Source: Legionella lansingensis (GTDB lineage Bacteria > Pseudomonadota > Gammaproteobacteria > Legionellales > Legionellaceae). From it: 64,000 bases of DNA. The translations under genes and the position numbers were made by a program. Location: the NCBI RefSeq assembly GCF_900187355.1, contig NZ_LT906451.1, positions 620,501-684,500 on the forward strand. The letters are read 5' to 3'. The notes below the pieces were generated by a model. That model made no database searches. It was not told where the DNA came from and worked only from the letters and a program-made list of their open reading frames with translations. Positions within the stretch are counted from its first letter, which is position 1; every line of letters starts with the position of its first letter. Shown piece by piece: positions 55,792 to 60,523 of the stretch.

Positions 55792-58700
55792 CTAGTACCC
55801 TAGTATAGGCTCTAACCATTTTTCAGATTCGGCTAAAGTTAAGGCTTTGCGACGAGCATAATTAATTACTTGATCTTGACCAATCAAACCAATACCAAAA
55901 TACCTGGATTCAGGATGTGCAATATACCAACCAGATACCGAAGATGCTGGTAACATGGCATAAGTTTCAGTGATGGTTAAATCAATATTTTTATCGGGCT
56001 CTAACATTGCCCAGAGCGTTTTCTTTTCAGTATGATCTGGACAAGCAGGGTACCCTGGAGCAGGCCGGATACCTTGATATTCTTCATTTATGATTTCTTT
56101 ATTAGATAAAGACTCTGTGCTTGAATAACCCCAGTATTTTTTTCGGACTAATTCATGCATGCGTTCTGCAAAGGCTTCCGCAAATCTATCTGCCAAAGCC
56201 TTTAACATAATTGCTGAATAATCATCATTGTTTTCTTCGAACCTTTTTACATGCTTATCGATGCCAATGCCTGCAGTCACTGCGAATGCCCCCATATAAT
56301 CGATTACTCCTGTTTCTTTGGGAGCAATATAATCGCTCAGGCAAAAATTAGGGTGCTGATTTTTTTTATTCGTTTGCTGGCGCAAATGATGTAATTTGTA
56401 AATGACTTTGGTTCTGTTGCTGTCAGAATAAATTTCAATATCATCATAATCCACCGAATTAGCAGGATAAAAACCTATGACCCCTTTTGCCTGCAACCAC
56501 TTTTCTTTAATTATTTTATCCAACATTATTTGAGCATCATCAAATAATTTTTGTGCTGTTTTTCCAATTAATTCATTATCAAAAATTTTCGGATATGAAC
56601 CATGTAGAGACCAAGTAAAGAAAAATGGCGTCCAATCAATACGCTCAACAAGGGAAGCCAAGTCAAAATCATCAAATACTTTTATGCCAGTAAACGTTGG
56701 GATAGTTATTTTATATTTGCTCCAATCTGTTTTAAACTTGTTTTCCCTACTTTGCTCTAATGAGAGCATCGTTTCGTTTCTATTCGATCGTCGTTCAAAA
56801 TCTTCTCTTACTTTTGCATAATCTATATCAACTTGTTTTTTAAACTCTATACGAGTCTCTTTATTCGCCAATTTATGAGCTACACCAACAGCTTTTGATG
56901 CATCATTAACGTGTACAACACAATGATTATAATTAGGTGCAATTTTTATTGCTGTGTGTTTTTTCGAGGTGGTTGCGCCACCTATCATTAATGGTAATTC
57001 AAATCCTTGTCGTTGCATTTCCTTAGCAACATGGACCATTTCATTTAATGAGGGTGTAATTAGTCCAGATAATCCAATAATATCGCAGTTTTGCTCTTTC
57101 GCTGTTTTTAAAATAACCTCGCAAGGGACCATTACACCTAGATCTATAACCTCAAAACCATTGCACTGTAGTACAACGCTGACAATGTTTTTACCGATAT
57201 CATGAACATCGCCTTTCACAGTAGCCATTAATACTTTACCGGCATTTGACTTTGATTTTCCACTGGTAAGTTTTTCTTTCTCGATAAATGGGTATAAATA
57301 GGTAACTGCTTGCTTCATTACCCTTGCTGATTTTACTACCTGCGGTAAAAACATTTTGCCATTACCAAATAGATCGCCAACGACATTCATTCCATCCATC
57401 AATGGACCATCTATTACTTTTAAGGAAGAGTTCAATAGGACTCTAGCTTCTTCTGTATCTTGTTCAATATACTCATTAATGCCATTTACTAATGCGTGAA
57501 GGAGGCGTTCATTAGTACTAAGCTTACGCCATTCTACTTCGTTTTTTACCGTGGTTTCGGTATTTTTTTTATATTTATCTGCTAAAGAAAGTAATTGATC
57601 AGTCCCATGATTAGAATCTTTGTATGTATTGAGTACAACATCATTAATCGCATCTAGCAACTCTTTTGGTACATCATCGTATACAGTTAGTTGTCCTGCG
57701 TTAACAATCCCCATATCCATGCCTGCATTAATAGCATGATATAAAAATGATGAATTAATAGCCTCACGAACAGTATTGTTACCCCGGAACGAGAAAGATA
57801 CATTAGACACTCCGCCAGACACTAATGCATAGGGTAAGTTCTTTTTGATTAATCTTGTTGCTTCTATAAAATCGACAGCGTAGTTGTTGTGTTCTATTAT
57901 TCCAGTTGCAATAGCGAAAATATTAGGATCAAAGATAATATCGTGAGCTGGAAACTCGAGTTCCTTCGTTAATATTTTATATGCGCGCTCGCATATGGTG
58001 TATTTTCTTTGTATAGTATCTGCCTGTCCTTGTTCATCAAATGCCATAACAATCACAGCTGCGCCATATCGTCTTGCTAATTTAGCTTGTTCTTTAAATT
58101 TTTCTTCACCTTCTTTTAATGAAATTGAATTAATGATCCCCTTGCCCTGGATGCATCTTAACCCAGACTCTATGACATCCCAATCAGACGAATCAATCAT
58201 AATGGGTACTTTGCTAATATCTGGCTCAGAAGCAATATAATTTAGGAAACGTGTCATCGCTGCAGCTGAGTCCAGCATTCCTTCATCCATGTTTACATCT
58301 ATTATTTGAGCCCCGTTTTCTACTTGCTGTCTTGCAACGGATAATGCAGCCTCGTAATCACCTGACTTAATTAAATTTAGAAATTTTGCGGACCCAGTGA
58401 CATTAGTACGCTCACCAACATTAACAAACAAGCTATTGCTATCAATAGTTAATGCTTCAAGACCTGATAATCTACATGCAACGGAAATATGGGGGATTTT
58501 ACGGCCTGGTGTATTACCTATTGTATCTATTATTGCTTTTATATGTTCAGGTGTTGTACCACAACAACCACCGATTATATTAACTAAACCACTATCCGCC
58601 CATTCTTTTAGCTGCTCTGCCATTTTAGGAGGGGATTCGTCGTATTCACCAAATTGGTTGGGTAAGCCAGCATTCGGATGGGCTGAAACATAACACTCTG

Positions 58701-59499
58701 CTATATTCGACATTTCCACAATATACTGTCGCAGATCCTCTGCACCCAATGCACAATTTAAACCTATGGATAAAGGTTTTATATGCTCTAATGAATTATA
58801 AAATGCTTCTGTAGTTTGACCTGTTAAAGTCCGGCCAGATCGATCTGTTATGGTACCAGAGATCATAACAGGGTAAATAATATTGTTTTGTTCAAAATAT
58901 TCAGAAATCGCGAATATTGCAGCTTTTGCATTAAGCGTATCAAAAATAGTTTCTACTAATAATATATCTACACCACCGTTTATAAGTGACGTTATTGATT
59001 CTAGATAGGAGTCTTTCAATTGTACAAAATTAATATTACGAAAAGCCGGATCATTTACATCCGGCGAAATGCTGCATGTACGATTAGTTGGGCCAATCAC
59101 CCCTGCAACAAACCTTGGTTTATTAGGCGTCTTTATAGTAAATTCATCAGCGGATGAACGTGCGATTTTTGCTGAAAAATAATTTATATCTGCAGAATAA
59201 TCTTGCATTTTATAATCAGCCATGGCCACACGAGTAGCATTGAAAGTATTCGTTTCAATAATATCAGCGCCAGCCTCTAAATAGGCATCATGCAAGTCTT
59301 TTATTATTTTAGGTTGTGTTAGGGACAATAAATCATTGTTTCCTTTTAAGTCACACTCCCAATTATAAAATCTATCACCGCGGTAGTCTTCTTCTTTTAA
59401 TTGGTGTTTTTGTATCATGGTACCCATTGCACCATCTAGAAACAAAATCCGTTCCTTTAGTAATTGATGCAATAAATCATAATTTCTAGATTTTTTCAT
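55792..59499 (-). CDS. metH: Cobalamin-dependent methionine synthase
   Basis: Transfers a methyl group from 5-methyltetrahydrofolate to homocysteine via methylcobalamin. It has 1235 residues, full family length with all four modules. The homocysteine domain has DGAMGTMIQ and zinc ligands in LNCALGAEDL and GGCCGTTPEHI. The pterin-binding domain has VNVGERTNVTGSAKF. The B12 domain has the cobalt-ligand His in DVHDIGKNIV and GLSGLITPSL. The reactivation domain has RPAPGYPACPDH near the end. It is the last gene of a minus-strand operon with a BtuM-like transporter and a QueF-like protein. No cobalamin riboswitch is seen. Confidence 0.96.
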   Translation of the reverse strand: MKKSRNYDLLHQLLKERILFLDGAMGTMIQKHQLKEEDYRGDRFYNWECDLKGNNDLLSLTQPKIIKDLHDAYLEAGADIIETNTFNATRVAMADYKMQDYSADINYFSAKIARSSADEFTIKTPNKPRFVAGVIGPTNRTCSISPDVNDPAFRNINFVQLKDSYLESITSLINGGVDILLVETIFDTLNAKAAIFAISEYFEQNNIIYPVMISGTITDRSGRTLTGQTTEAFYNSLEHIKPLSIGLNCALGAEDLRQYIVEMSNIAECYVSAHPNAGLPNQFGEYDESPPKMAEQLKEWADSGLVNIIGGCCGTTPEHIKAIIDTIGNTPGRKIPHISVACRLSGLEALTIDSNSLFVNVGERTNVTGSAKFLNLIKSGDYEAALSVARQQVENGAQIIDVNMDEGMLDSAAAMTRFLNYIASEPDISKVPIMIDSSDWDVIESGLRCIQGKGIINSISLKEGEEKFKEQAKLARRYGAAVIVMAFDEQGQADTIQRKYTICERAYKILTKELEFPAHDIIFDPNIFAIATGIIEHNNYAVDFIEATRLIKKNLPYALVSGGVSNVSFSFRGNNTVREAINSSFLYHAINAGMDMGIVNAGQLTVYDDVPKELLDAINDVVLNTYKDSNHGTDQLLSLADKYKKNTETTVKNEVEWRKLSTNERLLHALVNGINEYIEQDTEEARVLLNSSLKVIDGPLMDGMNVVGDLFGNGKMFLPQVVKSARVMKQAVTYLYPFIEKEKLTSGKSKSNAGKVLMATVKGDVHDIGKNIVSVVLQCNGFEVIDLGVMVPCEVILKTAKEQNCDIIGLSGLITPSLNEMVHVAKEMQRQGFELPLMIGGATTSKKHTAIKIAPNYNHCVVHVNDASKAVGVAHKLANKETRIEFKKQVDIDYAKVREDFERRSNRNETMLSLEQSRENKFKTDWSKYKITIPTFTGIKVFDDFDLASLVERIDWTPFFFTWSLHGSYPKIFDNELIGKTAQKLFDDAQIMLDKIIKEKWLQAKGVIGFYPANSVDYDDIEIYSDSNRTKVIYKLHHLRQQTNKKNQHPNFCLSDYIAPKETGVIDYMGAFAVTAGIGIDKHVKRFEENNDDYSAIMLKALADRFAEAFAERMHELVRKKYWGYSSTESLSNKEIINEEYQGIRPAPGYPACPDHTEKKTLWAMLEPDKNIDLTITETYAMLPASSVSGWYIAHPESRYFGIGLIGQDQVINYARRKALTLAESEKWLEPILGY

Positions 59500-60005: not shown

Positions 60006-60523
60006 ATTGTGTTTCCTGTTTTGAGTAATGGATATCTTTGTTCCAATAGATAAAAAATGGAGAAAAAAAGAAAACTAAAAAATAATGTACTGTTCAGACT
60101 GTTTTGTAAAAATGGTATTGCTAACAAATAGCATTCCGCTAATCCATTCATTGTATGATCATACATCCCGGATAATAACCATACGCCAAAATTACTAATA
60201 ACATAAAACGCAAGTGAGCCCGTTACTCCTGCTATTACAATATTTATAAGGCTTTCTTTTTTTTGAATTACAGTACCAATATACACCATAGAACACAGCC
60301 CTAGGTAGGTGAATATGATGGAATTATATAGCCCTAAATAAAGATCAGCTAATAACATTGAAAGCAAGGTGACCAAAACGGCCACGTGTTTATCCCAAAA
60401 TTTTGCCCCCGCAAATAATGCTATGGCGCCAATTGGCGTAAAATTAAATGGATGCGGAATAATTCTATATAAAGCTGATAACAAAATTATTACTACTAAG
60501 ATTGCAAATCGTGGCTGAAACAT
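60002..60523 (-). CDS. BtuM-like solitary vitamin B12 transporter (putative)
   Basis: 173 residues and about six membrane helices. The N-terminal PHPFNFTPIGAIALFAGAKF stretch and overall size fit the small membrane proteins related to BtuM of Thiobacillus denitrificans, a solitary ECF-type S-component reported to bring in and decyanate cobalamin through a cysteine in the helix 3 region (Cys80 there). This protein has a Cys at residue 77 (YLGLCSMVY), in a comparable place. Co-transcription with metH (via the intervening gene) supports B12 uptake. The assignment is by pattern and context, not by alignment. Confidence 0.6.
   Translation of the reverse strand: MFQPRFAILVVIILLSALYRIIPHPFNFTPIGAIALFAGAKFWDKHVAVLVTLLSMLLADLYLGLYNSIIFTYLGLCSMVYIGTVIQKKESLINIVIAGVTGSLAFYVISNFGVWLLSGMYDHTMNGLAECYLLAIPFLQNSLNSTLFFSFLFFSIFYLLEQRYPLLKTGNTI

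What the first reader, a model, noticed from the sequence alone, without database searches (positions are those of the whole stretch)
55792..60523. Putative B12 module: BtuM-like importer, cysteine-free QueF homologue and MetH in one operon
Seen: three minus-strand genes with an ATGA overlap and a 47-bp gap, encoding a six-helix protein with a single Cys in the helix 3 region, a QueF-fold protein, and full-length MetH. Known: BtuM of Thiobacillus denitrificans is a solitary S-component that takes up cobalamin and uses a Cys on the cobalt; MetH needs methylcobalamin. Inference: the operon couples B12 import to its use, and the middle protein acts on cobalamin, its lower ligand, or the folate substrate. 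Such a role for a QueF relative is not one I know of.
Basis: partly seen in the sequence, partly recalled or inferred. Interest (0 to 1): 0.85.

Follow-up and report, generated by a model that had tools for sequence, protein, structure and literature searches.

The report
Possible new methyl-folate-making enzyme beside MetH
A small protein related to a tRNA-modification enzyme, but lacking its key cysteine, is found with methionine-making genes in bacteria and phages, tends to replace a missing folate enzyme, and is probably a new way to make the methyl donor for methionine.

Summary
MetH is full length. The membrane protein is DUF6580, with an ECF S-component fold that BtuM, FolT and HmpT match about equally well; BtuM's invariant loop cysteine is absent. 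The interesting part is the middle protein ("QueFL"). It belongs to one well-supported QueF-derived clade (catalytic Cys replaced by Gly in 32 of 32 bacterial sequences; NADPH motif, Asp and ring-anchoring Glu kept; new TIDSDW tail). Its gene neighbourhoods point to methionine and the methyl cycle, not to B12 or queuosine. In one bacterial class QueFL and MetF exclude each other: MetF in 0 of 12 QueFL genomes and 53 of 59 others; all 12 have MetH. The window genome has MetH and QueFL but no MetF. Within 4 kb of phage QueFL genes lie metE, metK, ahcY or nucleosidase genes in 16 of 71 loci (0 of 80 control loci with true QueF), and queC-, queD- or queE-type genes in none. Best explanation (about 0.7): QueFL is a flavin-free, NADPH-dependent methylene-tetrahydrofolate reductase replacing MetF. 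Main evidence against: 16 of 16 Chitinophagaceae carry both. No activity has been measured.

The parts
60002..60523 (-). DUF6580 membrane protein, 173 aa, ECF S-component fold; predicted vitamin (B12, or folate-like) uptake
59547..60005 (-). QueFL, 152 aa, cysteine-free QueF-derived protein; predicted NADPH-dependent methylene-THF reductase
   Evidence: PF14489 70.7 bits; QueF fold, 4fgc/4f8b E about 2e-8; single clade 100/99; Gly at the Cys site in 32 of 32 bacterial sequences
55792..59499 (-). metH, full-length cobalamin-dependent methionine synthase, 1235 aa
   Evidence: TIGR02082 1733.9 bits; five Pfam domains including folate-binding PF00809 and activation domain PF02965
60688..62265 (-). 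insertion sequence directly upstream of the operon (406-aa transposase frame 60984-62204); ends approximate, judged by eye from the printed flanks
   Evidence: matches the inverted copy at 49621-51198; two mismatches from the transposase start to that copy's right end
49621..51198 (+). inverted, near-identical copy of the same insertion sequence on the other side of the island; ends approximate

Best explanation
QueFL is a methylene-tetrahydrofolate reductase of a new type: a QueF relative that has kept the T-fold, the NADPH motif, the conserved Asp and the Glu that anchors a purine- or pterin-like ring, has lost the cysteine needed for nitrile chemistry, and passes a hydride from NADPH directly to the 5-iminium form of 5,10-methylene-THF, giving 5-methyl-THF. 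In the window it supplies MetH with its methyl donor in a genome where no MetF was found; the DUF6580 protein probably brings in the cobalamin. Shown: gene order, predicted fold, residue conservation, gene presence and absence. Inferred: substrate, cofactor use and reaction.
For: (1) Mutual exclusion: in the class of G473, QueFL is in 12 of 71 genomes; MetF (PF02219) in 0 of those 12 and 53 of the other 59, Fisher p = 1.5e-9; all 12 have MetH matches, 8 over the cut-off and 4 in pieces. On a MetH tree the QueFL genomes are scattered: 8 changes, at least 4 forced by well-supported branches. (2) The window genome (one contig, 100% complete) has QueFL and MetH but no PF02219 match; SAR202 G469 has QueFL, MetH-like pieces and no PF02219 match. 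(3) Linkage to methyl-THF users: operon with metH (window); divergent to metH (L050, L051); abutting a methyl-THF:corrinoid methyltransferase-like gene (L069); followed by MetE in phages L280, L281. (4) MetK, AhcY, MetE or nucleosidase genes in 16 of 71 phage QueFL loci and 0 of 80 phage loci with canonical QueF; QueC-, QueE- and QueD-type genes in 62, 47 and 33 of the 80 and 0 of the 71. (5) Place of metF: AhcY adjoins metF in 5 of 6 gammaproteobacterial MetF loci (5 of all 22 MetF loci examined), and phage QueFL-MetK-AhcY occurs in 5 loci; E. coli metB-metL...metF against Chitinophagaceae metB-type-QueFL-hom. (6) Residues: NADPH motif (E62, L63, K/R64, L66, K67, Y69), D46 and E81 kept; Cys replaced by Gly in 32 of 32 bacterial sequences; roles of these residues in QueF from PMC5372742 passages.
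Against: All 16 Chitinophagaceae with QueFL also have a MetF match of 210-222 bits, so there QueFL is redundant or does something else. The two gamma MAGs have a divergent MTHFR (105-112 bits), one copy in each lying beside corrinoid- and pterin-binding pieces. Six class genomes have neither gene, so MetF loss has other causes too. Only 4 of 33 non-redundant phage QueFL clusters show methyl-cycle neighbours. Of the 12 class QueFL loci only 2 (G484, G485) showed a possibly methyl-cycle-related neighbour among the genes I annotated. AhcY was found beside metF in 0 of 4 Chitinophagaceae and 0 of 12 class MetF loci. Nearly all QueFL carriers are drafts, many of them MAGs, so absence of MetF is less sure outside the window genome. 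The MetH tree is a quick gene tree with long-branch warnings. No ligand model, no assay. The conserved tail (from residue 123) is not confidently modelled.
Confidence: 0.7

Rival explanations
1. QueFL serves the folate or methyl cycle in another way: it binds 5-methyl-THF or another pterin and delivers, protects or senses it, or reduces a different reduced-pterin intermediate, without being the methylene-THF reductase.
For: Same linkage data; coexistence with MetF in 16 of 16 Chitinophagaceae; six class genomes lack both MetF and QueFL.
Against: A binding or sensing protein does not explain why MetF is absent from all 12 QueFL genomes of the class while MetH stays, or why the NADPH motif is kept.
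Confidence: 0.17
2. QueFL acts on homocysteine, methionine, SAM or SAH (for example an SAH- or purine-linked step) rather than on folate.
For: Phage neighbours MetK, AhcY, nucleosidase and adenine phosphoribosyltransferase handle SAM, SAH and adenine; the metB-type and hom neighbours in Chitinophagaceae belong to homocysteine synthesis.
Against: Does not predict exclusion with MetF, nor the link with the methyl-THF methyltransferase-like gene in L069.
Confidence: 0.08
3. One reading: QueFL acts on cobalamin or its lower ligand.
For: Adjacent to MetH and to an S-component that may carry cobalamin.
Against: Two phage QueFL genes are followed directly by B12-independent MetE; the 16 Chitinophagaceae copies sit with a metB-type gene and, where the contig goes on (15), homoserine dehydrogenase.
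Confidence: 0.02
4. QueFL is still a queuosine / 7-deazaguanine enzyme (preQ0 reductase with an altered site).
For: TIGR03139 'preQ(1) synthase' just over its cut-off for the window protein.
Against: Catalytic Cys replaced by Gly in 32 of 32 bacterial sequences; the window genome and G450 carry a separate QueF; 0 of 71 phage QueFL loci have QueC-, QueD- or QueE-type genes against 62, 33 and 47 of 80 canonical loci.
Confidence: 0.03

Closest known systems
QueF (unimodular preQ0 reductase, e.g. B. subtilis QueF, PDB 4fgc/4f8b)
   Same: T-fold; NADPH motif E(S/L)K(S/A)hK; Asp62 and Glu97 equivalents D46 and E81; RGG strand
   Different: Catalytic Cys55 is Gly; new invariants (Y55, S79, Y80, R82, R99, TIDSDW and RGG tail); methionine rather than queuosine gene neighbourhoods; separate clade (100/99)
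MetF / MTHFR (PF02219, flavin-dependent, TIM barrel)
   Same: Predicted reaction, partners (MetH, MetE) and, in part, genomic place (near ahcY, metK, met genes)
   Different: Unrelated fold and sequence; no FAD expected
Mfr and Mer (flavin-independent MTHFR of mycobacteria; F420-dependent methylene-H4MPT reductase)
   Same: Predicted direct hydride transfer to a 5-iminium cation in a ternary complex
   Different: Both are (beta-alpha)8 barrels (PMC11094777, abstract and passages); QueFL is a T-fold protein
BtuM of Thiobacillus denitrificans (solitary S-component for cobalamin)
   Different: 13% identity; no Cys in the loop; no btuR neighbour; FolT and HmpT match as well

Membership tests
QueF (preQ0 reductase) | Cys55 equivalent forming the thioimide | tested here: not met
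   Gly in 32 of 32 bacterial QueFL; Cys in 32 of 32 canonical sequences; definition from PMC5372742 passages
QueF (preQ0 reductase) | Asp62 and Glu97 equivalents | tested here: met
   D46 and E81 in 25 of 25 QueFL rows aligned
QueF (preQ0 reductase) | QueF NADPH motif E(S/L)K(S/A)hK | tested here: met
   E62, L63, K64 (Arg in the window protein), L66, K67, Y69 each in at least 24 of 25 rows; S65 in at least 90% of 20 rows
QueF (preQ0 reductase) | T-fold | tested here: met
   AF2 model; Foldseek 4fgc_B E 1.9e-8
MTHFR / MetF | PF02219 domain (TIM barrel) | tested here: not met
   Pfam scan of the window protein gives QueF, no PF02219; T-fold model
MTHFR / MetF | Reduction of 5,10-methylene-THF | not testable with these tools
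   needs an enzyme assay or complementation
Mycobacterial-type flavin-independent Mfr | Homology to MSMEG_6596-type proteins | not tested
   no such query was run; presence of Mfr in the QueFL genomes was not excluded either
BtuM | ECF S-component fold | tested here: met
BtuM | Invariant Cys in loop L3 (Cys80) | tested here: not met
   no Cys in the loop after the third helix in 4 of 4 aligned sequences; C77 lies in the next helix and is Cys in 1 of 4; invariance from PMC6072759 passages; that L3 joins TM3 and TM4 is recalled
BtuM | Neighbouring btuR (in most hosts) | tested here: not met
   neighbours are QueFL, metH and an insertion sequence
DUF6580 (PF20221) | Score over the curated cut-off | tested here: met
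   172.8 bits, cut-off 27
MetH | Full-length domain set over the curated cut-off | tested here: met
   TIGR02082 1733.9 bits; PF02574, PF00809, PF02607, PF02310, PF02965

The most novel reading that the evidence does not exclude
A whole clade of proteins that current models name 'preQ(1) synthase' is a new, non-TIM-barrel, flavin-free methylene-THF reductase that evolved from the nitrile reductase QueF. It lets bacteria that lost MetF, bacteria that newly acquired MetH, and phages that carry parts of their own methyl cycle make 5-methyl-THF.
Probability: 0.65. Interest if true: 0.9.

Novelty: new variant of a known kind. Interest (0 to 1): 0.85.

Why it matters
[quoted passage not shown] PMC7857596, passages), and the three methylene-tetrahydropterin reductases compared in PMC11094777 are all (beta-alpha)8 barrels (abstract and passages). 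A 150-residue QueF relative doing this job would be a fresh invention of the reaction, would close a methionine pathway gap in genomes without MetF, would correct a misannotation, and would show phages carrying a folate-methyl supply. One complementation experiment can test it.

Tried and rejected
FolB or another folate-synthesis role: no FolB search was made. It is disfavoured because the 34 family relatives searched lack the window's QueFL, and because it would not predict exclusion with MetF.

A conserved BtuM-QueFL-MetH module: rejected as recurrent. DUF6580 is in 4 of 56 genomes, this one included, and in none of the 25 other bacterial QueFL loci within the stretch held. DUF6580 elsewhere in those genomes was not searched.

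Sequence link of DUF6580 to BtuM: phmmer (E up to 1) and a 4-sequence profile (E up to 10) found no PDB chain. Foldseek alone gave no hit under 0.001; the S-component match rests on VIA-align 2.

Riboswitches: Rfam at gathering score found only 9 tRNAs in the window, none at the operon. Promoter-like sites are no more frequent than in shuffles.

Replication of the MetF exclusion in the class of SAR202 G469 failed for lack of cases: 1 true QueFL in 393 genomes, the other 54 matches scoring 58-97 bits; of the 29 such loci viewed, 21 showed the motif, all with Cys. MetF was not searched in that class.

Plasmid and phage record collections: only ordinary QueF-like matches of about 31-40% identity among the rows listed. 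DUF6580 in plasmids: no match.

Literature, all in the open-access library: 'QueF' + 'methylenetetrahydrofolate reductase' 0 papers; 'methylenetetrahydrofolate reductase' + 'tunneling fold' 0; 'QueF' + 'methionine synthase' 4 papers and 'QueF' + 'cobalamin' + 'operon' 13 listed, both seen only as listings. Subscription journals are mostly not covered.
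Full report
What is in the window. Three minus-strand genes run DUF6580 (60002-60523), QueFL (59547-60005), metH (55792-59499), with an ATGA overlap and a 47-base gap. MetH has every domain, including the folate-binding one. The genes lie between two inverted, near-identical insertion sequences, about 49621-51198 and 60688-62265, on a 2.99-Mb single contig. In the family sample (35 genomes including this one) MetH passes its cut-off only here, and MetF occurs only in one other genome, G026, which has no MetH match; DUF6580 occurs in 2 of the 35 and QueFL in 1. 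On the MetH tree the window copy pairs with that of the NORP44 MAG, whose QueFL is also close (72-74%). So the operon was very probably acquired. The nearest named DNA matches are Legionella.

The middle protein is not a QueF. A pattern-based scan of GTDB species found 25 relatives at 53-73% identity: 2 gammaproteobacterial MAGs, 16 Chitinophagaceae, and 7 MAGs labelled Delta-, Oligoflexia, SAR202 or 'proteobacterium'. In a tree, 25 of these sequences (the window, 19 of the 25, and 5 of 6 further class members; L126 was missed by my pattern) form one clade, 100/99, apart from 32 canonical sequences. The QueF cysteine is Gly in all 32 bacterial sequences (window, 25, and 6 more) and in 65 of 71 phage ones; of the other 6, one reads Tyr and five did not fit my pattern. 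QueF is defined by Cys55, Asp62, Glu97 and an NADPH motif (PMC5372742, passages); Asp, Glu and motif are kept. New invariant residues include Y55, S79-Y80, R82, R99 and a TIDSDW..RGG tail. The AF2 model (pLDDT 76.7, tail poor) matches B. subtilis QueF best, then GTP cyclohydrolase I, bimodular QueF and archaeosine QueF-Like. The window genome and G450 carry a separate QueF; the other 24 of the 26 genomes searched have no other PF14489 match over the cut-off.

Gene neighbourhoods in bacteria. Window: operon with metH. L050 and L051: divergent from metH, with an ArsR-methyltransferase gene behind metH in L050. L069: the next gene abuts QueFL and resembles methyl-THF:corrinoid methyltransferase (NF005719, 166.8 bits, below its 259 cut-off) and the folate domain of MetH. 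Sixteen Chitinophagaceae: a metB-type PLP gene just upstream in 16 of 16, and homoserine dehydrogenase just downstream in 15, the 16th contig ending there (domains checked in L053, the others by sequence cluster). G484 and G485: an ArsR-methyltransferase gene directly upstream of QueFL; relatives of it stand upstream of metH in 6 of 30 flanked MetH loci. SahR, an ArsR-family regulator, controls ahcY, metH, metF and metK in Proteobacteria (PMC4239095, passages; the ArsR family name is recalled); that the present genes are SahR-like is inference. For the other class members, the neighbours that I annotated are not methionine genes; L074 has thiC.

Presence and absence of MetF. Of the 26 genomes (window plus 25), PF02219 is absent from the window genome and from all 7 of the third group; it is present in 16 of 16 Chitinophagaceae (210-222 bits) and, as a divergent form of 105-112 bits, in both gamma MAGs, one copy in each lying beside corrinoid- and pterin-binding pieces. 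In the class of G473 the 71 held genomes were searched: QueFL in 12, MetF in 0 of the 12 and 53 of the other 59, p = 1.5e-9. MetH matched in 70 of 71, including 12 of 12 QueFL genomes (8 over the cut-off, 4 in pieces). A MetH tree of 64 rows holds the window, G450, G042 and 61 of the 71 class genomes, 10 of them with QueFL; six rows under 560 residues were left out, G470, G472 and G451 among them. The QueFL genomes fall in several places: 8 changes, at least 4 forced. G489 lies deep among MetF genomes. In that script G042 was put in the group 'neither' although it has MetF; this does not touch the QueFL count. The p-value ignores relatedness; the tree is the answer to that, but it is a quick gene tree with long-branch warnings.

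Phages. A scan of viral contigs with the QueFL alignment found 71 loci. My gene caller picked up 62 QueFL frames, 33 clusters at 90% identity; 55 of 62 show all five features tested: Gly, QPD, SYER, DSDW, NADPH motif. L281 reads phosphoribosyltransferase, nucleosidase, two short frames, MetK, DUF2452, QueFL, MetE (711 aa, NF003556 838 bits, cut-off 541); L280 reads QueFL, MetE (cut by the stretch held; PF08267 236.7 bits); five loci read QueFL, MetK, AhcY; eight have QueFL next to the nucleosidase gene, six of these with MetK on the other side; L288 reads MetK, QueFL. The nucleosidase matches PF01048 but scores below the cut-off of every MTA/SAH nucleosidase model, so its exact name is tentative; the phosphoribosyltransferase of L299 passes an adenine phosphoribosyltransferase model. 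In all, 16 of 71 loci (4 of 33 clusters) have MetK, AhcY, MetE or the nucleosidase within 4 kb. Control: the best 80 of 175 viral loci with canonical QueF have none of these, while 62, 47 and 33 of the 80 have QueC (PF06508), QueE-type (radical SAM; name by eye) and QueD-type (PTPS) genes and 0 of 71 QueFL loci do. No MetF was found within the 71 loci; whole contigs were not searched. AhcY adjoins metF in 5 of 6 gammaproteobacterial MetF loci, but in 0 of 4 Chitinophagaceae and 0 of 12 class loci (5 of 22 in all). So phage QueFL stands near the genes that metF has beside it in gammaproteobacteria. E. coli has metB-metL and metF in one region, as Chitinophagaceae have a metB-type gene, QueFL and hom.

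Mechanism. The common factor of MetH, MetE, the methyl-THF methyltransferase-like gene and the missing MetF is 5-methyl-THF; cobalamin is not common to them. Known methylene-tetrahydropterin reductases protonate N10, form a 5-iminium cation and transfer hydride, with a shared Glu as acid (PMC11094777, abstract and passages). QueF binds its ring through Glu97 and brings NADPH to a C=N bond (PMC5372742, passages). With the cysteine gone a nitrile can no longer be activated by a thiol, but an iminium needs none. I therefore propose that E81 holds the pterin, D46 is the acid and NADPH gives the hydride. The extra conserved arginines could hold the glutamate tail (speculation).

Verdict. The B12 story is at most half of it. 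The middle gene is the discovery: a QueF-derived family that very probably does methyl-cycle work, most likely as a MetF substitute. It is not a member of QueF (Cys not met) nor of PF02219; it is predicted to work like MetF. I found no report of such an enzyme in the searches made.

Noticed in passing
window 49621-51198 (+) and 60688-62265 (-): Two inverted, near-identical insertion sequences enclose about 9.5 kb holding metH-QueFL-DUF6580, a fatty-acid-hydroxylase gene, a glyoxalase gene, an IS110-type transposase (51496-52437) and a frame at 52553-53851 that looks like an amino-acid dehydrogenase (by eye, not scanned): composite-transposon-like.
   Followed up: partly
L253, L255, L259-L262, L264-L266, L269, L281, L303, L306, L311, L312, L318: A gene of the DUF2452 cluster (PF10504 in L261) lies within 4 kb of phage QueFL in 16 of 71 loci, often directly next to it; its function is unknown and may belong to the same step.
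   Followed up: no
L303, L306, L312: A class II aldolase-type gene lies directly upstream of phage QueFL; the one in L303 resembles MtnB (methylthioribulose-1-phosphate dehydratase, 66.7 bits, below cut-off): possible methionine salvage link.
   Followed up: no
L173 3806-4909, L174 about 3721-4659, L050 2999-4057: ArsR-type regulator fused to a methyltransferase domain beside QueFL or metH; candidate regulator of the methyl cycle.
   Followed up: partly
class of G473: MetF in this class usually lies in a frame of about 600-1000 aa together with a homocysteine methyltransferase domain; six genomes (G477, G483, G487, G491, G499, G500) have neither MetF nor QueFL.
   Followed up: no
window 62357-64000: Large membrane-protein-like frame, reaching the window end, with no Pfam match over its cut-off.
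   Followed up: no
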